A stretch of 64,000 bases of DNA from Parapedobacter soli. GTDB lineage: Bacteria; Bacteroidota; Bacteroidia; Sphingobacteriales; Sphingobacteriaceae. The stretch is from positions 1 to 64,000 of the forward strand of contig NZ_JAMXAY010000013.1 of the NCBI RefSeq assembly GCF_025460835.1, read 5' to 3'. The notes beneath the pieces were generated by a model that saw only the letters and a program-made list of their open reading frames with translations, searched no databases and had not been told where the DNA came from. Both the position numbers and the translations under genes were made by a program. Within the stretch, counting starts at the first letter, position 1; each line of letters begins with the position of its first letter. This document shows, one piece after another, positions 37,796 through 59,474 of this stretch.

Positions 37796-39100
37796 ATGGC
37801 TTTGAAATACTCCGTCCGATTCGTACTCATGCAGACAAGGATAAAAAATAAACCCACATCTCTTCGATGCTTTGTCAGGTTCAACAACTGCCGATCCCCG
37901 TTCACCACCGATGTGAAGGTTGAGCCAAGATATTTCAATGTGAAAAAGCAGCAGGCTGATGTCACGGCTAGGTTCGACGGCAGCAAAATAAACGAACGTT
38001 TATCGCAGATAGAAGCATTTATCAAATCAAGGTTTGACACAATGGTGGACTATCCTGATCCGGTGCGATTTAGTGAAATATGTAAGCAATACACGAAGTC
38101 CGGTGAAATTTTCATTCCTGACGAGACAAAAAGGGATATCCCGAAAACACTCATTGCGTATATCGAACACCTCGCTTCGGAGAGCCGATCGGGCGCCAGA
38201 AAGATAGCGAAAGGACCACGTAAGGGCCAAAAGTACAAACCGGACACCATCAAACCATACGATAGCACAGTATACGTTCTTAAACAGTTTGCAAAGCATG
38301 AACGAACAGAAGATTATCCGTTCAAATTGGTAGACAGTGATTTCTACAAACGGTTTTCAGCTTACTTCTATGATGTGTTGGGACATTCAGTCGGCTATTT
38401 CTCTACGATGATTAAGGTCATTAAGCTTGCGATGAATGAATCCGGGGCAGACAAGCTGCATAATTACCAAGGTCATAATTCTCGCGAATTCATAAAGCCA
38501 GGGTATGAGGCTGACACCGTATCCCTCGATCTGGATCAACTGAAAAGACTACAAAACCACATATTTGAAACAGATCAGAAAGAGTATGAGAATGCCCGTG
38601 ATCTATTTCTTGTGGGATGCTGGACCGGTCTGCGATTTGAAGACTTCAACTCTATCAGGAAGCAAGATATACAAGATGATTTTATCCGCGTCCGAACAGA
38701 CAAAACCGAGGCCCGGGTATCAATACCTTATCACCCGATGCTCCGGAAGGTGTTCCTTAAATATGATGGTGGTCCACCACCATCGATGCATATCAACGAC
38801 CTCAATGCACAAATTAAGGTCGCGTGCAGGCTTGCTGGATTAAAACAACCTTACACAATCCGCAGGAACAAAAAGGGCGTTGATACCCTTGAAACCCATC
38901 CGCTGTACAAATTGATATCTACCCATACCGCCCGTCGGTCTTTTGCGTCTAATATGTTCCGATTAGGAATACCGTCTCTTTTAATCATGGCAATCACCGG
39001 TCACAAGACCGAAAAATCATTCTTGAAATACATTCGGGTCGGAGAAGAAGAGAAATCGCGGATGATGGCTGAACGGTGGAAGGAGATTAAATGGGAATAA
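37796..39100 (+). CDS. Phage tyrosine integrase
   Basis: 434 aa with the Bacteroidota integrase layout: N-terminal arm-binding domain ('ALKYSVRFVL...'), a SAM-like core-binding domain (about residues 100-220), and the catalytic domain with Arg280 ('TGLRFEDF'), His377-x-x-Arg380 ('HTARRSF'), His403 ('ITGHKTEKS') and Tyr412 ('FLKYIRV'). All five key residues are present, so the enzyme is probably active. It lies 160 bp from the proposed att core. Confidence 0.96.
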   Translation: MALKYSVRFVLMQTRIKNKPTSLRCFVRFNNCRSPFTTDVKVEPRYFNVKKQQADVTARFDGSKINERLSQIEAFIKSRFDTMVDYPDPVRFSEICKQYTKSGEIFIPDETKRDIPKTLIAYIEHLASESRSGARKIAKGPRKGQKYKPDTIKPYDSTVYVLKQFAKHERTEDYPFKLVDSDFYKRFSAYFYDVLGHSVGYFSTMIKVIKLAMNESGADKLHNYQGHNSREFIKPGYEADTVSLDLDQLKRLQNHIFETDQKEYENARDLFLVGCWTGLRFEDFNSIRKQDIQDDFIRVRTDKTEARVSIPYHPMLRKVFLKYDGGPPPSMHINDLNAQIKVACRLAGLKQPYTIRRNKKGVDTLETHPLYKLISTHTARRSFASNMFRLGIPSLLIMAITGHKTEKSFLKYIRVGEEEKSRMMAERWKEIKWE

Positions 39101-39776: not shown

Positions 39777-40031
39777 TTATAAACCATGTTTCTTCCTGGC
39801 CAGATCAAAGCATTCAAAAAGCACATCCATTAAATCTTTGGGCCAATTAAGGACATAATTTCCACTTAATATCCATTGCCCCGTCGATTTGCGATAGAAG
39901 AAAATGTGATGTACACCGTGTTTATCCTGAAAGTATACATGTGTATTACCTCCAAGGTTATCCATTGTATATGGTACTCGTTTTCGCTCCCCGAAATATT
40001 CGAATTCCAATACCCCACTGTAATCTTCCAT
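39777..40031 (-). CDS. Small phage protein of unknown function (84 aa)
   Basis: No family recognised. Sequence is mixed alpha/beta with aromatic residues ('EFEYFGERKRVPYTMDNLGG', 'HHIFFYRKSTGQWIL') and no TM segment. It is the last gene of the late operon, 51 bp after the tail esterase gene. Confidence 0.6.
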   Translation of the reverse strand: MEDYSGVLEFEYFGERKRVPYTMDNLGGNTHVYFQDKHGVHHIFFYRKSTGQWILSGNYVLNWPKDLMDVLFECFDLARKKHGL

Positions 40032-40082: not shown

Positions 40083-41516
40083 CTACAAACTATGGCTCAA
40101 CAACCAGTCATAGATGCTTTGGTCAAATGGGTCGTAGTTGCTATCTACCATTGGACCCATGCCTGTGCTGTTGAAGACTTTTTGAGGGTACTGATGTAGG
40201 AAGTCGTTGAATTGAGTAAACTTGGCAATACCGGGGTTTATTGAATTCAATTCAGCCACACCATCTAGTATGTTTTGCAATGTGTAGGGAGAACCTCCCC
40301 AACTCACGCTTTCACCAGAATTTCTAAATGTCCATGTTGGTACCGCCGCTATTTTGTCAATATCGAAGTGCGCCTCATAATCAGGGTCGGCATTATCCCC
40401 CCATACAGCTGGGTCGTACGACATGGCTACTCCTGCCGCAACCTGTCTCGTGGTTGCCGCACTTATCCCAATACCCACTCCTGAGGCTCCATCTGAATAT
40501 CCTATAAGGTACACCCTATCAGGGTCTACATTGTAGTTTGCGAGGACATAAGTAATAAAATCCGTGAGATTCTGTCCGCTATCATACCAGTACACATTTG
40601 TCGCAATCTGGGGAGAAAATGCATAAGCATCCTGCTTGAAGTTACCCATCGCCACCGACCAGTTTGGTCCATACTTCATTGCATTGGGCAGTTGTGTGGT
40701 TCCGTTACCACGCTCTCCTGAACCGTGCAGAAATATAAATGCAGGCTTCGGGGTGCTTGTATCAGCCGGTATGTACTCCACAAATGGCAGCGGTGACGCT
40801 GTAGTTCCAGCTTCTCTAAGCGTTTGAACACCATCTATCACCACATCATATTCCCTAACCACAAAGTAACTCAATGAATTGATATTTACAGAACCAGCGC
40901 GCGTGATGACTATCTTTATCTGTCCGCCCTGTGATTTCATTTCATCGAGACGTATCTGCTCCAAGTCATCAAAATCGTAGGATTCTGGCGTAGATGCAGC
41001 ACTGTCTCCTGAAATTACAAACCTGTTACCCGCTTCTGTACCCATCCTATAATATGCAGAAGTGATTATATCTCCCATGCTTCTCCCCGGCTCGTGGTTT
41101 ACAAGCTGGATCTGATAACGTTTACTATCATCCAGTCCTGTGAAAACCAGCGAATAGGCGTTGTTTGACCACCATCTATGCCTGTATAGGTTGGAATCAG
41201 GAGTGGACGGTGGATTGGAATCGTTAGTCGCCCCTTTCAGCTGGTTAGAATCGGTAACCGTTAGAGTAACTCCTGAAATAGATGAACCGTTTGTATCCAC
41301 GATAGAGCTGGTCACGAATGGGTTTGGGATATTGCCGTTGTCCAGCACCGGCCGCAAAACATTCGCCCTGGCAACCGCATCACCCGTAGCCCCATCATAA
41401 GACAGGTTAAACCTTGCCTCCCAGTTGAAATCTTGAACAGGGGGTAATTCTTTCTCCCATACCAGTGTATCGCCGATGTAGCGCCGCGTTACCTCCTGAT
41501 TTTCTATAAATCTCAT
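40083..41516 (-). CDS. Tail-associated protein with a C-terminal alpha/beta-hydrolase (esterase) domain
   Basis: 477 aa. Residues 1-230 are a beta-rich head unlike any family I can name, ending in a lectin-like or fibre-like fold; residues about 235-477 have an alpha/beta-hydrolase core: 'PAFIFLHGSGERGNGT' (oxyanion hole), 'RVYLIGYSDGASGVG' (GxSxG nucleophile), and a C-terminal 'FNDFLHQYPQKVF' with the likely catalytic His. The gene overlaps the upstream fibre-like gene by 4 bases. A secreted esterase at the tail end suggests removal of acetyl or other ester groups from capsule or exopolysaccharide before infection. Enzyme class inferred. Confidence 0.72.
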   Translation of the reverse strand: MRFIENQEVTRRYIGDTLVWEKELPPVQDFNWEARFNLSYDGATGDAVARANVLRPVLDNGNIPNPFVTSSIVDTNGSSISGVTLTVTDSNQLKGATNDSNPPSTPDSNLYRHRWWSNNAYSLVFTGLDDSKRYQIQLVNHEPGRSMGDIITSAYYRMGTEAGNRFVISGDSAASTPESYDFDDLEQIRLDEMKSQGGQIKIVITRAGSVNINSLSYFVVREYDVVIDGVQTLREAGTTASPLPFVEYIPADTSTPKPAFIFLHGSGERGNGTTQLPNAMKYGPNWSVAMGNFKQDAYAFSPQIATNVYWYDSGQNLTDFITYVLANYNVDPDRVYLIGYSDGASGVGIGISAATTRQVAAGVAMSYDPAVWGDNADPDYEAHFDIDKIAAVPTWTFRNSGESVSWGGSPYTLQNILDGVAELNSINPGIAKFTQFNDFLHQYPQKVFNSTGMGPMVDSNYDPFDQSIYDWLLSHSL

Positions 41517-42424
41517 ACCGTTGGATATTGGTTAATGATAGCGTATTCTGTATATGGGTCCTTGACAGCAAGTGCCTCGTAGTCTGCCTGCGTGATAGGG
41601 AGGTAGTTCTTAATGGGCCAGCCCTTACCCTCTTCCTGCTTGCTTTCAACCATAGCAGCGATTGCGGCGGGCTGAACAGCCGTATTAGCCAATGTTCCCT
41701 GTGCAGCAGTGGCATACCGTCCGTCAGCTTCCGACTTGTTGTAATAGTTGCTTAAATCGACGGTCGTGCCCAGCGGGTCCCATTCGGTTCCGGTCCATGC
41801 ATAGTTCATGTCGGTATCGAGCAGGTTATACACGTCGCCTGCCGTCAGATCATCTGTTGGTAATGCCACATAATTTGCTACCGATCCCTTGAATTTGTAA
41901 ATGCCGGCTACCTTGCTATCCGTGTAGTTCTTTGCCGCCAGCTCGGCCGCAGCAGCACTACCAGATGCATCAAAGTCCCCGGCCGGGCGGGTCGATGCCG
42001 AGCCAAGCCCAATGGCTGCCCGGGCAGCTGCGGCCGTTGCCCCGACGGCCATGAATTCGGGCTTTTCATCGATGTCATCCCACGTCGGATTTGAGAAATT
42101 GGAAGACACGATCGGATTGCTCGGATCCGTGTCGTCAATATCGATGCCCGGCCCCGGTTGAATCGATTGCAGCCCCGCGCCGCTGCCCCCACCTACGCTA
42201 AAACAATTGGTTTCTATCCAATTCTGCAAATCTTCAGCGCTCCCGAATGCTTCCCCGTTTCCGGTTACCTCATTATAACGGAACGCTATCTCGCCCATTT
42301 CCGTCACCAGCCTCGTGCCGCTGGCAAAGGGAATCTGACCTTTGATGCGCGATTTAACGATGTTCCATTTAAACGTTTCCGTTTCGATCGTGACCGTCTT
42401 GGCGGTCGTAGTGATTGTTATCAT
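41513..42424 (-). CDS. Phage tail-fibre-like structural protein
   Basis: 303 aa. The N-terminus is beta-rich ('MITITTTAKTVTIETETFKW'); then comes a 'WDDIDEKPEFMAVG' phage-type linker and Ala-rich and 'YYNKSEADGRYATAAQ' repeats similar to those in the tail-tip protein of this phage, indicating a trimeric fibre shaft. I chose ATG 42424 over TTG 42445. Its stop overlaps the start of the esterase gene by 4 bases (ATGA). Probably an adaptor or fibre that carries the esterase. Confidence 0.65.
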   Translation of the reverse strand: MITITTTAKTVTIETETFKWNIVKSRIKGQIPFASGTRLVTEMGEIAFRYNEVTGNGEAFGSAEDLQNWIETNCFSVGGGSGAGLQSIQPGPGIDIDDTDPSNPIVSSNFSNPTWDDIDEKPEFMAVGATAAAARAAIGLGSASTRPAGDFDASGSAAAAELAAKNYTDSKVAGIYKFKGSVANYVALPTDDLTAGDVYNLLDTDMNYAWTGTEWDPLGTTVDLSNYYNKSEADGRYATAAQGTLANTAVQPAAIAAMVESKQEEGKGWPIKNYLPITQADYEALAVKDPYTEYAIINQYPTV

Positions 42425-42431
42425 GATATTA

Positions 42432-43202
42432 TTATTTGATGTCAACTATTTTATATCCACCCCGGAAAGCCGGATACCAGTTACCGCTTTCGAAATCATG
42501 CAGGTAGTTTCCCTGTAGCCTCAACCTGCCGATGTCCAAGGACACACCCCCTCCCATCAGCACATCGCCCCGGTAGTACTCCCCCACGGCCATCACCGCT
42601 ATTCCCGTATTACGCTCCGGCGGCTCAATTCTAATGTGCTTCAATCCCATGATGGTGGCGTTGGGGTCGTTCGGCCAGAACCTGCCGTAAGTCCGGCGCT
42701 TTGCCAGCAGCCATTTGCGCTCACTGTACCACATCCAGTTCAGCTCCATGTTGTAGGTGTGGTTGAGCAGCGGCGGACGGTCTCCCAGCGGCTTTATGAC
42801 GTCCACGGTGAGCCACTTGTCCTTGTAGTTGAAGCTGGTGTCGGTCTCGGACATCACGAGCTGCAGTCGCTTTATCTCGGCACGGGCTTGGGTGTAGCTT
42901 TGCAGCACGCGGTTCCTCACGCCCCGTTCGTCATGCAGTAGCCTCATTATGCTGTCAATGATGCCTGCACTATCGGTAGCTTGGTTAACCCCCGCCTGTG
43001 TAAGCACATGCTCGGTTTCCTCCATTATCACCGCTTCAAGCCCCTTTTCATCAACCTTTCGGCTGATGATCTCGGCCTCTACCTTCACATTCTCTTTTGC
43101 CTGCCTCTCGATAGGCGATTCTGCTTGTGGTGGGTTTCGGAATATCCACCACGCGGCGCAAGCAAGCAACGCTAGTAGAATCAGAATGATTGAATTTTTC
43201 AT
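42432..43202 (-). CDS. Membrane-anchored phage protein, lysis region (DUF6808-like)
   Basis: 256 aa. One N-terminal TM segment ('IILILLALLACAAWWIF') with a short cytosolic start, then a helical region of about 100 residues and a C-terminal beta domain with 'GGGVSLDIGRLRLQGNYLHD' resembling outer-membrane or strand-rich Bacteroidota phage proteins. It is placed next to the endolysin and holin, so it may help disrupt the envelope, or be an anchored structural factor. The family name is tentative. Confidence 0.6.
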   Translation of the reverse strand: MKNSIILILLALLACAAWWIFRNPPQAESPIERQAKENVKVEAEIISRKVDEKGLEAVIMEETEHVLTQAGVNQATDSAGIIDSIMRLLHDERGVRNRVLQSYTQARAEIKRLQLVMSETDTSFNYKDKWLTVDVIKPLGDRPPLLNHTYNMELNWMWYSERKWLLAKRRTYGRFWPNDPNATIMGLKHIRIEPPERNTGIAVMAVGEYYRGDVLMGGGVSLDIGRLRLQGNYLHDFESGNWYPAFRGGYKIVDIK

Positions 43203-43487: not shown

Positions 43488-44138
43488 TTAGAATTTTTCG
43501 GATTTCCACTGAATTATTGCGCGCTCGAAGAATGCCGCCAGCTCGGCAATGTCCATTGCTCGATCAAGCCCGTTGACAATGCGCCGAGCATTATAGTAGT
43601 CGTAACCATCCTCCCGGTCGTAGTCAGCCAGCTTCTTGCCCGTGAACCAGCTATCGCGCATACCGCGCACCGTTATGTCGGCGCTAACACTTGGCTCCAG
43701 CGCCTTGTCAGGATTACCCACGAGGTCGATGCCCAGCTTCTCCCCTGCCAGCTCGTAGTTCCTGCGTCCTGTCAACTGGATATCGCCCATCCCGCGGTAC
43801 AGCCATCCATCATCCGTGCCGGGCCGATTACCGTTGCGCGACCCATACACGTAGTTAGCCAGCTTCTGCGGCTGCCTGACATAAGGCAATGCGCTCGCGA
43901 TCGTTGGGAAGCGGCTAGGCCATACCTGCATTAACCGCTCCGCTGACGTGTAGTTAAGATTCTCTACGGTCGGTTGCATCTTGCCTCCCGTTTCGTGATA
44001 AACAGATGCAAGGATGTACGCGAGGTGGTACTTGCTTCCGATCGCGTGAATGAGCGCGGAATCAACGATCCGCTTGACGCCATCCACTTGGGATGACGTC
44101 CGGATCTTCGGCGCGATATGTTGCCAGAACTGGTTCAT
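43488..44138 (-). CDS. Endolysin, glycoside hydrolase family 19-like
   Basis: 216 aa. Motifs typical of GH19 lysozyme/chitinases are visible: 'YILASVYHETGGKM' with the catalytic Glu, 'FRGRGFIQLTGRANY'-like 'YRGMGDIQLTGRRNYELAG', and 'SAERLMQVWPSRFPT'. It cleaves peptidoglycan glycan strands at the end of the lytic cycle. No signal peptide, so export should depend on the adjacent holin. Confidence 0.88.
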   Translation of the reverse strand: MNQFWQHIAPKIRTSSQVDGVKRIVDSALIHAIGSKYHLAYILASVYHETGGKMQPTVENLNYTSAERLMQVWPSRFPTIASALPYVRQPQKLANYVYGSRNGNRPGTDDGWLYRGMGDIQLTGRRNYELAGEKLGIDLVGNPDKALEPSVSADITVRGMRDSWFTGKKLADYDREDGYDYYNARRIVNGLDRAMDIAELAAFFERAIIQWKSEKF

Positions 44139-46379: not shown

Positions 46380-49300
46380 TTATGAAACCCATATATATCT
46401 TTTGCCCGATTCGGGTGATGAAGGTGCTGCCGATGGCACGATGATAGCGGACGGCTCAATGACGGGGCATGTGATTTTGCCCGAAAAGGATGTAGCCCCG
46501 TCTGGCGAGATTACGGCCTGACCGGTCGCAGAACCTGTCCCGGAAGGCCTCAAATAGAGAGATCCAAGAGGTGACGCAAGAATGACGTTGCCTGTTGCCG
46601 TTTCGCGAAGTACAGACGTGCTGGCGAACGAAATACCCCCAGTATTTGCCGCCGATGCCGCGATGGTTACCGAACTTGAAAAGGTATGTACTCCCGTCCA
46701 CGTCTTATTGCCTGATAACCCCGTTTGGTTACCGGACGACCAGACGAACTCGGATTTGTCAAGATTCTGCGTTGTCCAGAACGTATGAACGCTATTCCAC
46801 CCGCTGTGATTGGTGCGGAATTGGACTGTCTGGGCTGACGTGTTGAACCACAACTGCGCCATGCGTGTTGACGCCAATGCCATGTGTATGCCCGCGCCGA
46901 GCTGTGTAAACGGCGTATTTGCCGCGGTGCTTGCGCAAATAAATTGGTTTGCTGCCCCGAGTCCGTCAAATGCTGCGATACTACCAAGTGAGTTTATAGA
47001 CGCCAGTCCCCATTGGCGATAGTCTCCCCATCCATACGCCGCATTCCAATTACTCACTTGCCCATTGGTCGGTAAAGTGTATCCCGACGCAACCGAAACG
47101 CTAAATGTCGTATTACCCGTTTGATTGGCTCCGAAACTAGCGGATCCGGAAAGACCAGTGCCCGTCGATAGCGATAGCGTGCCGCTCCCGATGGTGGGGA
47201 ACGTGGCCAGCGAGCCGTTGCCTCGGATGTATTGGGAGGTCGTGCCGTTGGCGAGGTTGCCGGAGTGCCATAGCTCGTACCAAGGCGTTAGACCTCCGTT
47301 GTTTTTTGAGCGAAACCAGTACCGACCATCAGCACCCCCATGTCCGTTGTTGTAGTAAAATTGGACACCTGAGTTGTTGCCTCCTCTTGAGAACTTTATG
47401 AACCCACCGTATGATTTCCCGGAAGGACCATCCCCAGCCCATGTGTTGGTTCCGTACCCTGAACGGTAGCCGCCAAGTGGCAATGATTCGTCTAAGTTCT
47501 CAACAGCTCCAGAATTTTGACCGACGAAATAGTTGTTAGAGAAATATCCCTCAGAGCTGTGATTCCCCCAAGAATACGCAGTCTGCCCGTTCACTATCCG
47601 GCTATCATTCCCTTGTGCTACTGTATTAGCTGTCGTGCCGAATGGCCTGTTGAAGCCTGAATTCTTGGCGAATGCCGGCTCCTTGCCATCGAGCGCCGCT
47701 TGCAATCCGGTAATTTGGCTGATTGGGTGCGTGTGCGACGCTGGCGCATAGCTTGCGGTGAAGTTCACCCACTTGCCGGTACTGCTGTTGTACCGCAAGA
47801 GCTGATTATTGGCGAGGGATGCCAAGGCAATGTCATCCAAACCAGCAAGTGTGCCGGACGTTCCCCCACCGCCTCCGCTTCCCGGCGCACCGAACCAGAC
47901 ATAGGCCTGACCGGAATGCGGGCCAGTGGGTGCCGACTGCGGAATGGAAAGCGCACCCGTGAAGTGATTGTGCGCGGTCCATGTATTCGATCCGGCGAGA
48001 GTACCAAAATCAGATGGATTGAGGTTGCCGTCGTGCCAAAAGATATTCCAGTTTCCCCATGCGCCGGTGTTGCCTTTGTTGCGTATCGCAAAAACACCGT
48101 TCCCCCGAAATGGCCAGTTAACTTGTAAAAGGTCATTATTTCCAGTTGAATATTGATTGACTGTTAAAACACTCGCTTGAGAAGTTGGCCGGTTACTAGC
48201 GACAGTGTTAAGCTCGAAGCTACCCCTTACCGCGTCGTTGAGGTCAGAAAGCGCTTGATAAGCTGGCGCATTGAATATATTCCAATACCCAGCCTCCGTA
48301 TGGTTGCCCCACCCAAACGCCGTCTGCCCATTAACTATCCGGGAATCATTCCCCTGCGCTACCGTGCCGGATGTAGTTCCGAAGTTTTTGTTAAACGCAG
48401 AATTCTTCGCGAAAGCCGGCTCCTTGCCATCCAATGCTGCCTGCAGACCAGTCACCTGTGAAATCGGATGCGTGTGGCTGATGGGCGCATACCGGGCATC
48501 TAGCTGACTGTTATTTCGCACCTGCGCTGAACCCGTACCCAACACGGCATACCCGCTAAGGTCAACGGTGAACGTGGAGTTAACCCACTTACCCGTGGAA
48601 CTATTATATCGAAGAAATTGATTGTTCGTGACGCTAGACAACGCAACGTCATCCAGCCCTGCCAAAGTACCAGCCGAACCGCCGCCGCCTCCGCTTCCCG
48701 GCGCGCCAAACCATAGGTAAGCCTGTCCCGCATGAGGCCCAGATGGCGCAGCCTGCGGAATTGACAAAGCGCCCGTAAAATGATTGTGGGCGGTAAACGT
48801 ATTGTCCGATGCACGCACCGCGTAGCCAGCCAGCTGGTGGTTGCCCCACCCGTGCGCGGTTTGCCCGTTAATGATACGGGAATCGTTCCCTACCGCTACC
48901 GTGCCGGCAGTCGTGCCTGTCGGTATGCGCGCGATAGCCAGCGTACCTGCGTTAATGTCGCTGGCGTTGTGCGTGTGCGCCGATGGTGCGAAGGTGGTAG
49001 GCTTGTCCGACACCTCCGCCCACGTAGGCATCCAGCCTATCGCCTTATACCGCGCATCCAGCTGCGTGTTGTTCCGCACCTGACCGCCTGCCGTTCCCAG
49101 TACCGCGTACCCTTGGGCGTTCACCCAGCTTTGCGTCGCGTAGCCAGTAAGGTCGACGGTGAAGGAGCTATTCTTCCATCGTCCTATGCTGGCATCATAG
49201 GTGAGCACCTGATCGTTCTGCGGCGATGTTATTAGTGTGTCGTCCAAGCCCGCCAACGTGCCGGACGTTCCCCCGCCTCCACCTGAACCCGGCGCGCCGA

Positions 49301-50855
49301 ACCAAATGTAAGCCTCGCCTGGAACGACGTCTTCCGTGAGTGGCGCGGCAAGCGGCACCGACAACAGATGTGTGTTGCGCGTGCCCCTGACAGTAATAGC
49401 CCTGTCAGTTACCGACCCCCGTCTAGTGACTGATTGCAATGTTTCGCTAGTCTGCAATGACCCGTCAGCCAGCCCCGATCGTTGGATCGTGTATGCAAGC
49501 CTATCCTGCGCGTTTCGCTGGCTTACCAGCTCGCTAACTGTGATGATGTTAGACAGCGACACCTCGTATCGGTACGGCTCCTGCAGGTCGCGTGTGAAGC
49601 CGGAAATCCGTATGTCGGTATCAACACCCAGCGGCGTATCCACGATCCTCACCGTATTGCCAAGCACCAATTCCACCGCGTCCTCAAGCACATATTTCGG
49701 CTTGAGCGATGCCGACCAATTGTAATGGCTGACCTTGTAATCTTCCAAATACTGCTCGCCGATATCTTGCAACTTAGCCTCCTCTGCGGCCACATAGGAC
49801 GGTGGCATGAAGATGTCGAGCAGGACATACTTGTCGCCGACAGCGGGCTTCAGCACGGCGTTAGGCACGCCCGACGGATATGCTGGATCGTCAATTATTG
49901 GATTGAGCGTAATTTGTCTGGTTGCGTGGTCGTAACCAGCGTCGGCAATGGTAAAGGTAAATCCAGCCAATTGACCTGAAATAAACGCCACCTTTGCCGG
50001 CTCATTGGTCAGGTAGCTATTGATATTAAAATCAAGCGAAGTGTCACGGAAAACGTTGTCAGCCGTAACATGGCTCACCGTTCCGACCCTGTGAGGATAT
50101 ATGTTGTCGAAAGTGACCGTCTGCTCCACGACGTCCCCTACTGGCGTGACCGTAATAGGATTGCCGCCGGTGGGCTGCAAGCGTCGGTGTCCGTAGTCGG
50201 CCGGAAGGTTGCGCGTGCCACCCAACACAGTCAGTCGGTTAATGACCGGGATATCGCTACGATCGCGCCGCAGTTCATAAAGTTCATTTGCCTTGCCATA
50301 CTCCCAGGTAAGGCCGCTTGAAGCTTGGTTGCGTCCGAAATTGATCTGCTTTCCCGTTACCCAGAATTCAAGGTTATACTTGTCGGCCAAATCTTGCAAT
50401 ACCGTCAGCAACTTGGCGTTGCTGTACCCGAATTGCATCACCTCGGTGGGTTCTACAGCGCCCACCGTCCATCCGCTTGATACCCGATTGGCGTTCCTGA
50501 CGATTAAATCAATCATCGTGGCCGCATCCGACATCATGTAGACTTCCGATTCAGTCAGCTGGTTATCCTTGTCGAGCGTCTTTAGCTCCCATTTTCCTAG
50601 GTCGTAATACAGCGCCTCAAATTCGAGCTGGTACGTGAAGCCTATCTTATCGAACCGCCTGCCAATATTGGATGGTCTGTTGATTTTATAGGTCTGGCCG
50701 TACACCTCGACGGTGTCGCCGATTTGGAACGCGACTGGCGAAGGCAAAGAGAATTCCATCTCCACCCTGTCCTCGGACATGATAGCCTTGAACTGCTTTC
50801 CGGATGCTCGGACCGCAGCAATGACGGTACTTCCTCTTTTAATCTCGTAGATCAT
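46380..50855 (-). CDS. Large tail-tip/tail-fibre protein with repeated modules (1491 aa)
   Basis: The first roughly 470 residues are a tail-hub/tail-associated domain ('VEVYGQTYKINRPSNIGRRF', 'TYQLEFEALYYDLGKWEL'). After it come three copies of a fibre cassette near residues 512, 708 and 980, each with 'PS-P--G-AY-WFGAPGSGGGGG' and 'GTLAGLDD', then shaft repeats ('ARYAPISHTHPISQ', 'AALDGKEPAFAKN', 'GNDSRIVNGQTA-GWGNH'). A pyocin-knob-like 'GNTGAWGNWNIFWHDGNL' is at about residue 950. The C-terminus is again the cassette start, 'APSSPESGKRYIWVS'. It probably forms the tail tip and central fibre that contacts the host. Confidence 0.85.
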   Translation of the reverse strand: MIYEIKRGSTVIAAVRASGKQFKAIMSEDRVEMEFSLPSPVAFQIGDTVEVYGQTYKINRPSNIGRRFDKIGFTYQLEFEALYYDLGKWELKTLDKDNQLTESEVYMMSDAATMIDLIVRNANRVSSGWTVGAVEPTEVMQFGYSNAKLLTVLQDLADKYNLEFWVTGKQINFGRNQASSGLTWEYGKANELYELRRDRSDIPVINRLTVLGGTRNLPADYGHRRLQPTGGNPITVTPVGDVVEQTVTFDNIYPHRVGTVSHVTADNVFRDTSLDFNINSYLTNEPAKVAFISGQLAGFTFTIADAGYDHATRQITLNPIIDDPAYPSGVPNAVLKPAVGDKYVLLDIFMPPSYVAAEEAKLQDIGEQYLEDYKVSHYNWSASLKPKYVLEDAVELVLGNTVRIVDTPLGVDTDIRISGFTRDLQEPYRYEVSLSNIITVSELVSQRNAQDRLAYTIQRSGLADGSLQTSETLQSVTRRGSVTDRAITVRGTRNTHLLSVPLAAPLTEDVVPGEAYIWFGAPGSGGGGGTSGTLAGLDDTLITSPQNDQVLTYDASIGRWKNSSFTVDLTGYATQSWVNAQGYAVLGTAGGQVRNNTQLDARYKAIGWMPTWAEVSDKPTTFAPSAHTHNASDINAGTLAIARIPTGTTAGTVAVGNDSRIINGQTAHGWGNHQLAGYAVRASDNTFTAHNHFTGALSIPQAAPSGPHAGQAYLWFGAPGSGGGGGSAGTLAGLDDVALSSVTNNQFLRYNSSTGKWVNSTFTVDLSGYAVLGTGSAQVRNNSQLDARYAPISHTHPISQVTGLQAALDGKEPAFAKNSAFNKNFGTTSGTVAQGNDSRIVNGQTAFGWGNHTEAGYWNIFNAPAYQALSDLNDAVRGSFELNTVASNRPTSQASVLTVNQYSTGNNDLLQVNWPFRGNGVFAIRNKGNTGAWGNWNIFWHDGNLNPSDFGTLAGSNTWTAHNHFTGALSIPQSAPTGPHSGQAYVWFGAPGSGGGGGTSGTLAGLDDIALASLANNQLLRYNSSTGKWVNFTASYAPASHTHPISQITGLQAALDGKEPAFAKNSGFNRPFGTTANTVAQGNDSRIVNGQTAYSWGNHSSEGYFSNNYFVGQNSGAVENLDESLPLGGYRSGYGTNTWAGDGPSGKSYGGFIKFSRGGNNSGVQFYYNNGHGGADGRYWFRSKNNGGLTPWYELWHSGNLANGTTSQYIRGNGSLATFPTIGSGTLSLSTGTGLSGSASFGANQTGNTTFSVSVASGYTLPTNGQVSNWNAAYGWGDYRQWGLASINSLGSIAAFDGLGAANQFICASTAANTPFTQLGAGIHMALASTRMAQLWFNTSAQTVQFRTNHSGWNSVHTFWTTQNLDKSEFVWSSGNQTGLSGNKTWTGVHTFSSSVTIAASAANTGGISFASTSVLRETATGNVILASPLGSLYLRPSGTGSATGQAVISPDGATSFSGKITCPVIEPSAIIVPSAAPSSPESGKRYIWVS

Positions 50856-51292
50856 GTCGTAATCGCAAATCGCTCTGTGGGATGGTCGTCGACCAAAACC
50901 AAATTGAACTCAAATCCAACCTTTCCCGACCTGAACGTGCCAAGCTTCCGCACACCCGTCATGTCCTGATACGATACTTTGTAGCGACGGTTCCGGCTGA
51001 CGATGTCGAAATTGAACTCACCGGTGGTCATCAGGAAATCACACAACGCGTTGTATTTCGTGTGGAAATCCGATTCGCTGGTGGCCATAAGCGTACAGGG
51101 GATGACCAGCGTCCGGCTTTCAAACCGCCGGGTGCCGAGGTAACGTTCCGTGCCGTTCTCGCCCGCCCAGTTGATCGATAGGCCGTTATCCTTCAGCTTC
51201 GGTGCTTTCAATAGCTCGGCATCCGTACCCTTGCCGAAGTATATCCCCCATTGTGTAGCCGGGTCGTATGTATTCCACCTGTAGTTACTCAT
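50852..51292 (-). CDS. Distal tail protein (Dit-like)
   Basis: 146 aa, beta-rich, beginning 'SNYRWNTYDPATQWGIYFGKGTDAEL' and ending 'HPTERFAITT'. Between the tape measure and the tail-tip gene is the standard siphovirus position of the distal tail protein, which joins tail tube to tip. Start ATGA overlap with the tape measure stop. Function by position. Confidence 0.65.
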   Translation of the reverse strand: MSNYRWNTYDPATQWGIYFGKGTDAELLKAPKLKDNGLSINWAGENGTERYLGTRRFESRTLVIPCTLMATSESDFHTKYNALCDFLMTTGEFNFDIVSRNRRYKVSYQDMTGVRKLGTFRSGKVGFEFNLVLVDDHPTERFAITT

Positions 51293-54200
51293 CGTAATCC
51301 TGCCCCCCTCATCAGGCTGTCAGTGTTGGAGATTTTGTTATTCAGCGAAACGATGGCCGTCTCGATGTTGGCGAGCCGATCGGTATTGTCAGCCGTACGG
51401 CCTGTATTCGCGTTGATGCTTACCAGCACCGCCAGTTTCGCATTCATGATCTGCAATTGTTCGTTGTAGATGTTCGTGTTGGATTTGGTGACTTCCAGCA
51501 ATTGCAGCTGGGCTAGCCTTAGCCCGCCGAATTCGGCCTCCAGCCTGTTGGCCGTGCTTTCAGTAATGCCTGAGATGGCGCGGGAAAGTCCCTTGCTCTC
51601 AGAATCTTCCGATTCAAAACTGATTCCCGTAAGTTCTTTTAGGTCGTCGAATTGCTTTTTCGCATTGTTTATGATGTCGTTGTATGCGCTTTCAAGATCA
51701 GATATCTCGCCCCTGTTCAATCCATCCTCCGCTGCGGTCGCAAAGTCCTCATACCAACCCTGCAATTGGGTTTCCAGCACATTTCGCTTCAAAGATTGCA
51801 GGATGGCCCGTTGCATGATCTTCTCGAAGTTGTCGGCAAAATCTTCAGCGGCAATGGTGCCACGCTCGAACATCCCTACAATATCATCAGCGATGCCGCC
51901 GAATGTGGTGCCTGTGAGCTCGGCGCGCAACTGGTTGTTGGCTTCCTTCCATAACTCATACTGTTCGATGATGTTGTTTATTTTCGCAGACATCACATCG
52001 TCGAACTTCCCCTCGTCAAGCATTCGCCGAAGACGGGTAATCTCCTCTTGGGTGATATCCTCGATGGATTTCCAGTCAAACCGGTACTGTTCGGCATTTA
52101 GCACACGCTCGCGCAAATCTTTGAGTAGTCGCTCCTCTACTTCCCAATCGGTGCCCCAACGCTTGAACGGGTTGATTTTATTCCAAAAGTTGTCGGCTTT
52201 TTTACTGGCATGTTCAATGGCTTTGTCGAGTTCCTCAATGGAACCGAAATTCTTGTTGAATTCGTCCAGAAGCTGGTTATTACCCCTGTTGTTGCCCTGC
52301 AATGCAACTATACCCAAAGGTAGGCCGGAAATGCTTTCGTTTACTGTTCTAGCGGCATCGTTGGCCGCTTTGGAATAGGCAGCAATCTTATCCGTTCCGT
52401 AGATGTCATTAACCAGCTGTAACTGGTATTCGAGCGCACGCGTGACCGCATCAAGCTGTTTGATCTGGAAATCGTTAGCCTCCTTTTCCCGCTGGGCACG
52501 CTTGCTGTAAGATGCCTCAATGGCTTCGGATATCCCGCCAAATAAACTAAGGAACGCACCGATGATGGAGCCGATACCGCCTGCCTTACTCATGCCTCCA
52601 CCCACATCTTGGAAGGTTTGCCCCAACGTTTTGGCAAGCTGGCTGACTTGACTAACCATGGCGCCAATCGTTTTGAATGAGCCCGACATCGTGCCGTCAA
52701 AACGGATGGCCGACTCAACCAGCTGGCCAAAGCCATCTACCAACCCAGTGAGGTTGGCAAAATTCTCCTGCTCCACATTTTCAATCGCACCGGTGAAAAA
52801 ATCGCCGAACATCTTTTTCAACTCCGCCTTTTCAGCCTCGGTAGCACCCCTCATGGCATCGATGAGGTTCATCACATACTCCTTACCGTGCTTTAAAGCG
52901 GTAAGCGCTACCGCGGATCCGGCCGTATCAAGAGAACTCATCATTTCCTTGTACCACGCATCGCTCTCGATTTCGGTTTTATAAAGCTCTTTCAGTTCCT
53001 CATCCAGCTGGAGCTTGCGTAATCTTCGGCCTTCTTCGTCGAGCTCCTGCATATCCTTGGCGGCATTCTCACGCAATCGTACGCGCTTCTGCTCGTAGGA
53101 GGCATAATCTTGCAGGAGGCGCTGGGTATTGGCATCACGGTCCTGCTGCTCCTGTTTCACGATGCCGCGTTGCAAGTCTAGCAGTTCTTTAAGCCGCTCG
53201 GATTCCGGGCCCGTGAGCCCAGCGGCCATTGACTTACCGATTAGCAGCGCCGTTTGTTCCTCTACCCGCTGGCGGAAGCTGTCGATGATATCCAGCTCCT
53301 TTGCATATCGCTGGCGGGCCGACGTTTCTCCCAGTTCGTTCTTCCAGCTTTCGAAGTCACGCCAAAGTTCACGCTGTCGGTCCAGCTGGGTGATCAGCAA
53401 TTGAGTATCTTGACGGTACTTGATATCACCCGTCTCACGCGCTTCCATTCCGTCAATTACGGATAGCACACCCGGACCTATTCGTTGGCTTGCAGGGGCT
53501 TTTCGGTTATGCTCCTCGATGACCTGCCGTAGCTTGTCGTAATGATTGCGGGTTTCCTGAAGCTCACGCTCATTGGCGGTCATGCCTTTGGCTTGGATGT
53601 CGGCTTCCTTCTCGGCAATCCGTTGCAGGATATCCAGCCGCTTATCGCCCCAGCGCTCCAGATCCTTATTAGCTTTTTCACCCTCTTTGGTTTTACCCAT
53701 CAGCAGGTCTCGTTCCTCGGTCAGTGTTTTGAGGGATTCCTTGAGGCCGTCGATCTTCTTCTTATCGAATACGGCATCAGGGCTCAATGCCGATTTAAGC
53801 TCGGCTTCCGTGGTCGATATCTCCTGGTTCAGCTCTTTTAAGCGTTCGGTGATGGTGACCACCGGCTCGGTAATGTCCTCCGGTTTAACGCCGGTGATGA
53901 TTTCCTCGAATTTGTCACCCCATACTTTCTTCAACTCATCCATAGAGGTTTCCAGCACCTTCTTCTCCTGGTTCACGATACTTTCACCCATGGATTCACC
54001 GCTGAACAGGTCCCGGAAATACCGCCCCCATGTGCGATCGCTCCCCTTGTAGAATGTGTTCTGGAACGACCGCCCGAACTTGGTCCACATATCGATCCCC
54101 TTAACGCCGTTTCGGTTTAGCTCATCCATCTTTTCCGCAAGGGCATTGAACTCTTCGAATGCCTTTCGTGCTGATGCGGCCTCCCTGATTTTGGCGATGT

Positions 54201-55539
54201 ATTCGTCTAGTGCTGCAGTAGCCTTGCCCGTGGCCACCTCTTCCTGGGAGTAGGAAAGTAGGATGCCGTCCGTCTGATCGAGTAGTTTCTTGTATGCGGC
54301 CTCCTTCTGTTCTGCAGTAGAAGTCTGGCTCTTCATCACCTCGATGAGCTGCTCTATCTTTCGTTTTTCCTCGTCTGCTGATCTGGCGCCAGCCTCTTCG
54401 GCCTCGTTAAGCCGCACCCTGGCTGCTGCTGTTGCGTCTGTGATTTGGTTCAAGGAATAGATGACAGCAACCAGTGCAGATATAGCAGCTGTGTAAGCGG
54501 CCGTCGTCATCATGAGTGCTAATTGCCGTGATCTTAGCAACTCCAGTAACGCAGCCTTGGCCTTCATGGCGTTGAAGTGCAATAATTCAACAACCGTCCA
54601 CCCTTTCGTTAACGATATGTTGAGCTGTTGTACGGCCGCTGTAGCGATTAGTGCAGCTCGATAAGAACCGTATACAATTACCAGCCCCGAAAGTATATCA
54701 AGCAGCTTATCGTAATTCTCTATAATAGTACTAACCCCGGAAATGGTAGCGTTTATGATGCCCTCGTTTGACTTTCCGATATCATTGAGTACCATGTCCC
54801 AAGCATCGCGTACACGCTCTATCTGTCCTTGGAATGTTTGGCTTTGTGCCTCCATAAGGCCGCCGAACATCGAGCCCTCGGCGGTCATATTGCGGAAAGC
54901 CTGCTGTATCTCTTCGAACCCCACCTTGCCGCGCGAAACGAAATCATTAACCTGGTCGACAGTAGTTCCCAGCACCTGTGCCAATTCCCGGTAGATAGGG
55001 ATACCTCGGCCCGCGAACTGCCGGATATCCATGAGATATGCGCGACCCTGCATCCTCAGTGTACCATATAGGTAGGTAAGCTCACCGATCGGTTGAGAGG
55101 TCCCCGCAGCGACGTCACCGAGCATACGTAGCTCCTCGGTGACTTCCTCGGCGATGGAGCCGTAGGCAAGCAGTTGTTTAGCCGCGTTGGCGGCGTCTTT
55201 CAGCCCGAACGGCGTGGTGCCGGCAAAGTCGACCAGCTCGGCCAGAAGTTTGTTCGCTCTATCCTTGCTTTTCAGCATCGTGGTGAACGTGATATCCAGC
55301 TGCTGGAATTCGCTGCGGACATTGATAAGGTCATTAACGAATCGTGATATCGCCTGCTGGCTGAAATATCCGGCAATGGACGCGGCGAACACAGACATGG
55401 CTTTATCCATCCGCTTCGTTTCCTTCACGGTGGTATCCGCCATGCCGACGATACGCTGCTCCATGGCGTTCAGTTGCCGCTTGAAGTCGGTATCCTTTAT
55501 GTAAGCATCGAATGAAAGCCGTCCGCCGTTGATATCCAT
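51289..55539 (-). CDS. Tail tape measure protein (1416 aa)
   Basis: The N-terminal region has the TMP signature 'FTTMLKSKDRANKLLAELVDFAGTTPFGLKDAANAAKQLLAYG' and 'RGIPIYRELAQVLGTT', followed by long helical coiled coils and hydrophobic segments ('ALMMTTAAYTAAISALVAVI'). It is the longest helical protein of the late region. It sets tail length and enters the cell at DNA injection. At about 1.5 A per residue the tail would be about 210 nm. Confidence 0.93.
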   Translation of the reverse strand: MDINGGRLSFDAYIKDTDFKRQLNAMEQRIVGMADTTVKETKRMDKAMSVFAASIAGYFSQQAISRFVNDLINVRSEFQQLDITFTTMLKSKDRANKLLAELVDFAGTTPFGLKDAANAAKQLLAYGSIAEEVTEELRMLGDVAAGTSQPIGELTYLYGTLRMQGRAYLMDIRQFAGRGIPIYRELAQVLGTTVDQVNDFVSRGKVGFEEIQQAFRNMTAEGSMFGGLMEAQSQTFQGQIERVRDAWDMVLNDIGKSNEGIINATISGVSTIIENYDKLLDILSGLVIVYGSYRAALIATAAVQQLNISLTKGWTVVELLHFNAMKAKAALLELLRSRQLALMMTTAAYTAAISALVAVIYSLNQITDATAAARVRLNEAEEAGARSADEEKRKIEQLIEVMKSQTSTAEQKEAAYKKLLDQTDGILLSYSQEEVATGKATAALDEYIAKIREAASARKAFEEFNALAEKMDELNRNGVKGIDMWTKFGRSFQNTFYKGSDRTWGRYFRDLFSGESMGESIVNQEKKVLETSMDELKKVWGDKFEEIITGVKPEDITEPVVTITERLKELNQEISTTEAELKSALSPDAVFDKKKIDGLKESLKTLTEERDLLMGKTKEGEKANKDLERWGDKRLDILQRIAEKEADIQAKGMTANERELQETRNHYDKLRQVIEEHNRKAPASQRIGPGVLSVIDGMEARETGDIKYRQDTQLLITQLDRQRELWRDFESWKNELGETSARQRYAKELDIIDSFRQRVEEQTALLIGKSMAAGLTGPESERLKELLDLQRGIVKQEQQDRDANTQRLLQDYASYEQKRVRLRENAAKDMQELDEEGRRLRKLQLDEELKELYKTEIESDAWYKEMMSSLDTAGSAVALTALKHGKEYVMNLIDAMRGATEAEKAELKKMFGDFFTGAIENVEQENFANLTGLVDGFGQLVESAIRFDGTMSGSFKTIGAMVSQVSQLAKTLGQTFQDVGGGMSKAGGIGSIIGAFLSLFGGISEAIEASYSKRAQREKEANDFQIKQLDAVTRALEYQLQLVNDIYGTDKIAAYSKAANDAARTVNESISGLPLGIVALQGNNRGNNQLLDEFNKNFGSIEELDKAIEHASKKADNFWNKINPFKRWGTDWEVEERLLKDLRERVLNAEQYRFDWKSIEDITQEEITRLRRMLDEGKFDDVMSAKINNIIEQYELWKEANNQLRAELTGTTFGGIADDIVGMFERGTIAAEDFADNFEKIMQRAILQSLKRNVLETQLQGWYEDFATAAEDGLNRGEISDLESAYNDIINNAKKQFDDLKELTGISFESEDSESKGLSRAISGITESTANRLEAEFGGLRLAQLQLLEVTKSNTNIYNEQLQIMNAKLAVLVSINANTGRTADNTDRLANIETAIVSLNNKISNTDSLMRGAGLR

Positions 55540-58370: not shown

Positions 58371-59474
58371 CTAAGATTCTTTCTCGTCCACCCTGAGGAT
58401 TGCGAAATCGTTCTTGCCGTTGAACACAGGCACCGCATTCATTTCGTACTCGACGAAACGGCCCTCTTCCCGGCGATAGCTGGAGATGAGGTTTTCCTCA
58501 TACACGCTGTAGACCTTATTGGGATGCGGATCCTTGGATTCCAACGCATCCTTCACCATGAGCTTGGCCACGGTGGAGGCGGTGCGGAAAACGACCCGGT
58601 TGTCCTTGAAGGCATTCACCGGCGCGGTGTTGGTACCGGGCAACGTGATGAACACATCCACGATCTCGATAGGCGGCAAACCGATCACCTTGAAGTAGCC
58701 GTTCAGCATTTCCTGACTGACGATACCGGATGGGGTAACCCGTCCTTTCGGCACGTCGACGGTGAAGCCTGCTTTGATTTTCGCCGACTCCAGCACCAGC
58801 TGTGCGGTTACGAAATTCATCTGCAACTTGGTTACCATCTTACCCTTCGCACGCAGTGCCAATACGATGTACTGGAATACGGCAACGGGATCGGAGTTCG
58901 CCTTATCGCTGAACAGAACATCCGTCGAGCGCAGCTTGTACGTCGGGATCTTGAGGTCAAGTTCCCACTGGATGCCGTCCGGGTTATTGGCCAGCGTCAC
59001 CTCATACTTGCCGTCTGACAGACCGTTGTAGAACAGTAGATCAAGACGCTTGTGCGGCGCGATCACGGCCGGCTCATACATGTTGAAGAGGAACTTCAAC
59101 ACCTTCTGCCATTCCGCCGCCTTCCTTTCATTGGTGAAATTCTTGGCGCGGTCGCGGTAGCGTCCCTCCAGCATCATGAGTGTATCCAGGCGCTCGTTAT
59201 CGAGCTGCCAGCGATCCCCCATGCGACCGATCGTGCCTGTGATCGACCCAAGGTTGGGCATCTCACGGAGCGGTTTGTCGGCATTTTTCGCGATGAACGA
59301 ACCTGCCTGTGCGGCCGCATATTCACCGACGAATTCATTGTAAGCCCCAGAAGCCGTAGGCTCCGTGTCCATCTCTTTTTTCCACTCGGGCTTATAAGTG
59401 GAAATCTTCATCTGCTCTTGGATGAAGGCATCGAAGTTTTTTTCCTTCGAAATTTCCGTCAAAATTGTTTTCAT
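58371..59474 (-). CDS. Major capsid protein
   Basis: 367 aa. It has an N-terminal helical arm and the long alpha/beta domain of Bacteroidota phage capsids; 'NADKPLREMPNLGSITGTIGRMGDRWQLDNERLDTLMML' and 'ERKAAEWQKVLKFLF' plus 'FITLPGTNTAPVNAFKDNRVVF' point to an E-type/HK97-like capsid. It follows the decoration protein in order and is the most conserved structural gene here. Confidence 0.85.
   Translation of the reverse strand: MKTILTEISKEKNFDAFIQEQMKISTYKPEWKKEMDTEPTASGAYNEFVGEYAAAQAGSFIAKNADKPLREMPNLGSITGTIGRMGDRWQLDNERLDTLMMLEGRYRDRAKNFTNERKAAEWQKVLKFLFNMYEPAVIAPHKRLDLLFYNGLSDGKYEVTLANNPDGIQWELDLKIPTYKLRSTDVLFSDKANSDPVAVFQYIVLALRAKGKMVTKLQMNFVTAQLVLESAKIKAGFTVDVPKGRVTPSGIVSQEMLNGYFKVIGLPPIEIVDVFITLPGTNTAPVNAFKDNRVVFRTASTVAKLMVKDALESKDPHPNKVYSVYEENLISSYRREEGRFVEYEMNAVPVFNGKNDFAILRVDEKES

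What the first reader, a model, noticed from the sequence alone, without database searches (positions are those of the whole stretch)
40083..41516. Tail protein with an esterase domain, possibly a capsule or glycan deacetylase
A 477-aa late protein couples a beta-rich N-terminal part to an alpha/beta-hydrolase with GxSxG and a C-terminal His, next to a fibre-like gene that overlaps it by 4 bases. Polysaccharide-active phage tails are usually beta-helix lyases or SGNH/GDSL-type deacetylases; an alpha/beta-hydrolase in this place in a Bacteroidota phage is less common. It could remove ester groups from host exopolysaccharide during adsorption.
Basis: partly seen in the sequence, partly recalled or inferred. 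Interest (0 to 1): 0.6.

Follow-up and report, generated by a model that had tools for sequence, protein, structure and literature searches.

The report
Phage tail protein with esterase domain
A dormant virus in a Parapedobacter bacterium (Bacteroidota) carries a tail gene whose second half is an ester-cutting enzyme, at a tail position where other phages carry spikes or an unrelated ester-cutting enzyme, so it probably trims chemical groups off the host's surface during attachment.

Summary
On the minus strand, 41516-40083 encodes 477 aa whose ATG overlaps the stop of an upstream 310-aa tail gene by 4 bp (ATGA). Residues 222-477 model as an alpha/beta-hydrolase (AlphaFold2 from 70 aligned sequences: pLDDT 88, pTM 0.90). 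The best solved matches are esterases 4q82 and 3doh. Ser341 (GYSDG), Glu402 and His441 lie at the canonical triad places; relatives nearly always have Asp where this protein has Glu402.

A tail role gains new support. The first ~28 residues match a short "head" (E.v.RYiGdxLvW) on proteins of Streptococcus, Gordonia and Mycobacterium phages (E 2.8e-8, next hit 0.62). In all six pairs checked, as here, the gene before the head protein ends in Pfam Phage_tail_C. In two Gordonia phages the slot holds an SGNH esterase. In two congeneric prophages the same adaptor N-terminus (74% identical) continues into a beta-helix-like region.

It is therefore most likely a tail-tip esterase acting on host surface glycan. 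Substrate, activity and virion location are untested. Similar layouts exist (Arthrobacter phage Seahorse gp33), and lipases were predicted in Cellulophaga phage virions: a new variant of a known kind.

The parts
40083..41516 (-). 477-aa tail-associated esterase-domain protein (whole gene, stop included)
   Evidence: closest relatives of its C-terminal domain
41442..41516 (-). N-terminal 'head' motif, residues 1-25 (MRFIENQEVTRRYIGDTLVWEKELP), shared with proteins next to Phage_tail_C genes in Streptococcus, Gordonia and Mycobacterium phages
   Evidence: profile of 7 heads from other phages finds this protein at E 2.8e-8 among 14,304 ORFs, next hit 0.62
40854..41441 (-). residues 26-221, middle region of unknown fold (no family match)
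40086..40853 (-). residues 222-477, alpha/beta-hydrolase (esterase-type) domain
   Evidence: AlphaFold2 pLDDT 88.4, pTM 0.90; Foldseek to 4q82, 3doh; profile search
40707..40727 (-). HGSGERG, residues 264-270, oxyanion-hole loop
   Evidence: H264, G265, G270 invariant in 70 rows
40488..40502 (-). GYSDG, residues 339-343, nucleophile elbow with Ser341
   Evidence: Ser in 69 of 70 rows; sits between a strand and a helix in the model
40311..40313 (-). Glu402, candidate triad acid (Asp in 65, Glu in 5 of 70 rows)
40194..40196 (-). His441, candidate triad histidine (His in 68 of 70 rows)
41513..42445 (-). upstream tail/adaptor gene (310 aa from TTG; likely true start ATG at 42424 by comparison with homologues), coupled to the esterase gene through ATGA
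41537..41608 (-). Phage_tail_C domain (PF24243) at the C-terminus of the 310-aa protein
   Evidence: E 6e-7, 29.1 bits, cut-off 23.7
41933..42436 (-). conserved adaptor N-terminus of the 310-aa protein; in two prophage fragments of a congeneric genome it is 73-74% identical but continues into a different, beta-helix-like region
41513..41516 (-). 4-bp stop/start overlap (ATGA)

Best explanation
The 477-aa protein is a distal tail component of a temperate siphovirus-like phage. Its short head and its coupling to the Phage_tail_C-ended adaptor gene suggest that the two proteins assemble together at the tail tip or on side fibres (inferred). Its C-terminal alpha/beta-hydrolase uses Ser341-His441-Glu402 and an HGSGERG oxyanion loop to hydrolyse ester groups, most likely O-acetyl or other acyl decorations on host surface glycan, during adsorption. 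Shown: the gene, the fold prediction, conserved nucleophile and histidine, an acid at the right place, head motif and partner-gene architecture shared with minor tail proteins, and variable C-terminal modules in this slot. Inferred: virion location, activity, substrate, step of infection.
For: Fold: AF2 pLDDT 88.4, pTM 0.90; best solved matches are esterases 4q82 (Foldseek 9.6e-16) and 3doh (1.1e-13). Triad: Ser341 in the strand-helix elbow, Glu402 in the loop after the next-to-last strand, His441 in the loop after the last strand; the acid column is Asp in 65 and Glu in 5 of 70 rows, never anything else. Tail role: head profile E 2.8e-8. Upstream genes of six head proteins from other phages all end in PF24243 above cut-off, although they were picked by the head alone. 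One such partner, EJ-1 ORF65, was identified in virions by N-terminal sequencing (record note). Heads occur on annotated minor tail proteins. Slot variation: SGNH esterase in Gordonia RedWattleHog and DalanDe; beta-helix-like region fused to the same adaptor in two congeneric prophage fragments. Both genes are absent between relatives of the same two flanking genes in viral contig L038. The esterase gene has 47% GC against 52-56% for tail and lysis genes, fitting later acquisition.
Against: No experiment shows the protein in virions. The usual HGxxD motif reads RNSGE and the Trp after the catalytic His is Pro. The domain is very divergent (end branch 2.16 changes per column, best identity 33%). 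One relative with a similar RGSAE motif has lost Ser and His. No close phage relative was found. The head seeds were found by similarity to this head, directly or at one remove, so 2.8e-8 is optimistic; the partner-gene check is not affected by that.
Confidence: 0.66

Rival explanations
1. Catalytically dead or weak hydrolase fold used only to bind a host glycan (a receptor-binding, lectin-like use).
For: HG to RN, Asp to Glu and Trp to Pro changes at otherwise conserved places; very long branch; a relative with RGSAE has lost Ser and His.
Against: Ser, His and an acid are all kept, as is the HGSGERG oxyanion loop. Phage endolysin-like proteins L048, L050 and L052 keep Ser and His with Glu at the same place.
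Confidence: 0.17
2. Lysis-accessory esterase (like lysin B or a peptidoglycan O-acetylesterase) made late and released with the endolysin, not a virion part.
For: The gene lies a few genes downstream of the endolysin gene. Distant alpha/beta-hydrolases are fused to endolysin-like proteins in other phages (L042, L046-L054, L056).
Against: The head motif and Phage_tail_C partner occur on tail proteins. The gene sits directly behind an adaptor gene, not the endolysin, and homologous adaptors carry spike-like C-termini. No lysin B or cutinase family match.
Confidence: 0.08
3. Lysogenic-conversion cargo (moron) near the attachment end that modifies the lysogen's own surface.
For: Gene is near the integrase end of the prophage; lower GC than its neighbours; nearest bacterial relatives look like secreted esterases.
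Against: ATGA coupling to a tail gene, head motif, no signal peptide evident at the N-terminus.
Confidence: 0.07

Closest known systems
SGNH-domain minor tail proteins of Gordonia phages RedWattleHog gp30 and DalanDe gp25
   Same: Same two-gene layout: preceding gene ends in Phage_tail_C, overlapping start (4 bp in RedWattleHog), head motif, then an esterase domain.
   Different: The esterase there is SGNH/GDSL (PF13472, PF00657), not alpha/beta-hydrolase; the enzymes are unrelated in sequence family.
Arthrobacter phage Seahorse gp33 (annotated esterase)
   Same: Long N-terminal part plus C-terminal alpha/beta-hydrolase, gene close behind a tail protein gene, between the endolysin region and the integrase.
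   Different: No Phage_tail_C match in the two genes before it and no head motif seen in its sequence; the enzyme is related by fold only (Foldseek 9.5e-8, 14% identity).
Predicted virion-associated lipases of Cellulophaga phages (Pires et al. 2016, cited in PMC5380687)
   Same: Ester hydrolases predicted in virions of Bacteroidota phages.
   Different: No sequence match to this protein was found in the phage collection; those predictions had no experimental validation at the time of that review.
Bacterial esterases: 4q82 (Haliangium ochraceum), 3doh (thermostable esterase), Parapedobacter esterases L002 and L003
   Same: Fold, oxyanion loop, nucleophile elbow and His; L002 and L003 share the C-terminal stretch ending in IY-W.
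   Different: L002 and L003 have Asp as the acid; none has the phage head or middle region.
SGNH tail-fibre esterases of Klebsiella prophages and phage G7C gp63.1
   Same: Proposed role: removing acyl groups from host surface polysaccharide (PMC13123978).
   Different: Different fold, and esterase activity was demonstrated there; here none is demonstrated.

Membership tests
alpha/beta-hydrolase superfamily | canonical fold with nucleophile elbow, acid after the next-to-last strand, His after the last strand | tested here: met
   AF2 model and secondary structure, Foldseek, alignment
alpha/beta-hydrolase superfamily | catalytic triad geometry (atomic distances) | not testable with these tools
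Pfam Abhydrolase_2 / BD-FAE | score above the curated cut-off | tested here: not met
   15.7 bits against 23 and 26.8
NCBIfam short-chain PHA depolymerase / PHB esterase | score above the curated cut-off | tested here: not met
   28.2 against 150 and 22.1 against 107.85 bits
SGNH/GDSL hydrolase | GDSL/SGNH family match or fold | tested here: not met
   no GDSL match; the best fold matches are alpha/beta-hydrolases
Phage_tail_C / head-protein tail pair | preceding gene ends in PF24243 above cut-off | tested here: met
   29.1 against 23.7 bits
Phage_tail_C / head-protein tail pair | N-terminal head motif | tested here: met
   E 2.8e-8; seeds were found by similarity to this head or one step from it
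virion-associated tail esterase | protein present in the virion | not testable with these tools
   needs mass spectrometry of induced particles
virion-associated tail esterase | ester hydrolysis on host glycan | not testable with these tools
   needs an assay

The most novel reading that the evidence does not exclude
A widespread two-gene tail-tip 'socket' (Phage_tail_C protein plus head-motif protein), shared by phages of Bacteroidota, Actinomycetota and Streptococcus hosts, accepts unrelated surface-acting modules. In this Bacteroidota prophage it holds an alpha/beta-hydrolase with a Ser-His-Glu triad, recruited from bacterial secreted esterases, doing the job that SGNH esterases do elsewhere.
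Probability: 0.45. Interest if true: 0.5.

Novelty: new variant of a known kind. Interest (0 to 1): 0.4.

Why it matters
Phage tail enzymes that trim, rather than cut, surface polysaccharides are increasingly recognised, but the examples met here are SGNH enzymes of Klebsiella, E. coli, Acinetobacter and actinobacterial phages. This case suggests that an unrelated ester-cutting fold fills the same tail slot in a Bacteroidota phage. It also gives a sequence signature (Phage_tail_C gene followed by a head-motif gene) for finding such exchangeable tail-tip modules in unannotated prophages.

Tried and rejected
Direct relatives in phages by tblastn and in viral contigs: none. N-terminal part in the genus, in 396 Bacteroidota genomes and in the PDB: only chance-level matches. 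Single-sequence structure prediction of the whole protein: failed. PHROGs for the target: none. The viral-contig alpha/beta-hydrolases L042 and L046-L054, L056 turned out to be multidomain endolysin-like proteins, not tail proteins, though three aligned ones show Glu at the acid position. Gordonia esterases Sanjuju gp23 and YorkOnyx gp26 lie close to the major tail protein gene, not in the tail-tip slot. PF24243 in 396 Bacteroidota genomes: only this window passed the cut-off; of the weaker matches, the four inspected (L162, L164, L166, L168) did not look like tail genes. The Tunturiibacter hit (H25) lay on the strand opposite its annotated gene and was dropped. Stenotrophomonas Jojan60 (H17) lacks the head at its N-terminus. 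SGNH proteins of Arthrobacter phages Abidatro and MissAmericana were expected to show the head and the partner motif; on reading the sequences neither was seen.

Full report
What is there. The window is from a Parapedobacter genome: a same-genus genome in the search, G003, matches the record of P. luteus DSM 22899 in contig length and position. A prophage lies at the right of the window, with an integrase at 37796-39100 (+) and late genes on the minus strand. These include a major head protein (58371-59474), the tape measure gene (51289-55539), a Dit-like gene (50852-51292), a large tail-tip gene (46380-50855) and an endolysin (43488-44138). They are followed by small genes, the 310-aa tail gene and the 477-aa gene. 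The 477-aa frame is at 41516-40083 (minus), and its ATG overlaps the upstream TGA by 4 bases.

The enzyme. Sequence searches alone give weak family matches but a clear match to PDB esterase 4q82 and to an esterase gene in the same genome. I aligned residues 222-477 with 69 relatives and predicted the structure: pLDDT 88.4, pTM 0.90. The nearest solved structures are the esterases 4q82 and 3doh, and a profile search agrees. Ser341 is at the strand-helix elbow, Glu402 follows the next-to-last strand and His441 follows the last strand. In 70 rows the acid column is Asp 65 times and Glu 5 times. The other four Glu rows are three phage endolysin-like proteins that keep Ser and His, and one bacterial copy that has lost both. 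So the triad is plausible but altered, and activity must be shown. A maximum-likelihood tree leaves the domain on a long branch with no firm place. Its C-terminal stretch resembles that of a group of Bacteroidota esterases that includes the Parapedobacter ones.

The tail link. First, the N-terminal ~28 residues resemble short N-termini of proteins in Streptococcus, Gordonia and Mycobacterium phages. A profile made from seven of these, without the window protein, finds it at E 2.8e-8 among 14,304 frames, the next being 0.62. The seeds were found by similarity to the window head or one step from it, so this number is optimistic. Second, and not subject to that bias, the gene before each of six checked head proteins ends in PF24243 Phage_tail_C above the curated cut-off, as the 310-aa gene here does. 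The upstream partner in phage EJ-1 is recorded as a virion protein identified by N-terminal sequencing, and several head proteins are annotated minor tail proteins.

The slot varies. In Gordonia RedWattleHog and DalanDe the head is followed by a GDSL/SGNH hydrolase. In two prophage fragments of a congeneric genome (G093) the N-terminal ~170 residues of the 310-aa protein are 73-74% identical, but the rest is a repetitive stretch that I read as a beta-helix spike; no Pfam family confirms that. In viral contig L038 the two genes are missing between relatives of the same two flanking genes. The esterase gene is 47% GC where tail and lysis genes are 52-56%.

Mechanism. Most likely the protein is assembled with the 310-aa protein at the tail tip and removes ester groups from host surface glycan during adsorption, as reported for SGNH tail proteins of other phages (PMC13123978). 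The substrate is inferred; nothing here distinguishes O-acetyl from other acyl groups. Rivals are a binding-only fold, a lysis accessory and a lysogenic-conversion gene; each is weighed above.

Novelty. Alpha/beta-hydrolases near phage tail genes are not new. Arthrobacter phage Seahorse gp33 has a comparable layout, and lipases were predicted in Cellulophaga phage virions (PMC5380687). What I did not find described, in a limited literature search, is an alpha/beta-hydrolase on the head-motif/Phage_tail_C pair. In 396 Bacteroidota genomes PF24243 passed its cut-off only here.

Noticed in passing
L042, L046-L054, L056 (viral contigs): Long phage proteins begin with an alpha/beta-hydrolase and continue with regions that look like a GH25-type lysozyme, a CHAP/NlpC-like part, peptidoglycan-binding and SH3-like parts: endolysins with an esterase at the front. 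The later domains were read by eye, not searched.
   Followed up: partly
window 39777-40031 (-): 84-aa gene of unknown function just after the esterase gene; a 30% identical relative follows the same flanking gene in viral contig L038.
   Followed up: partly
L057:1350-2090: A second esterase-like copy beside an apparently intact one has lost the catalytic Ser and His: a decayed or repurposed paralogue.
   Followed up: no
L177 10405-11232 (-): Arthrobacter phage Seahorse gp34 is a second alpha/beta-hydrolase, with a lipoprotein-like N-terminus, next to the tail-end esterase gp33 on the opposite strand.
   Followed up: no
L038 4720-6900: The related viral contig carries a 726-aa protein resembling a pectate-lyase-type spike (read by eye) before its endolysin-type gene.
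   Followed up: no
window 41513-42445, PF24243 census: Phage_tail_C passed its cut-off in only one of 396 sampled Bacteroidota genomes (this one), while it occurs in the Streptococcus and actinobacterial phages examined: the pair may have entered Bacteroidota phages rarely.
   Followed up: partly
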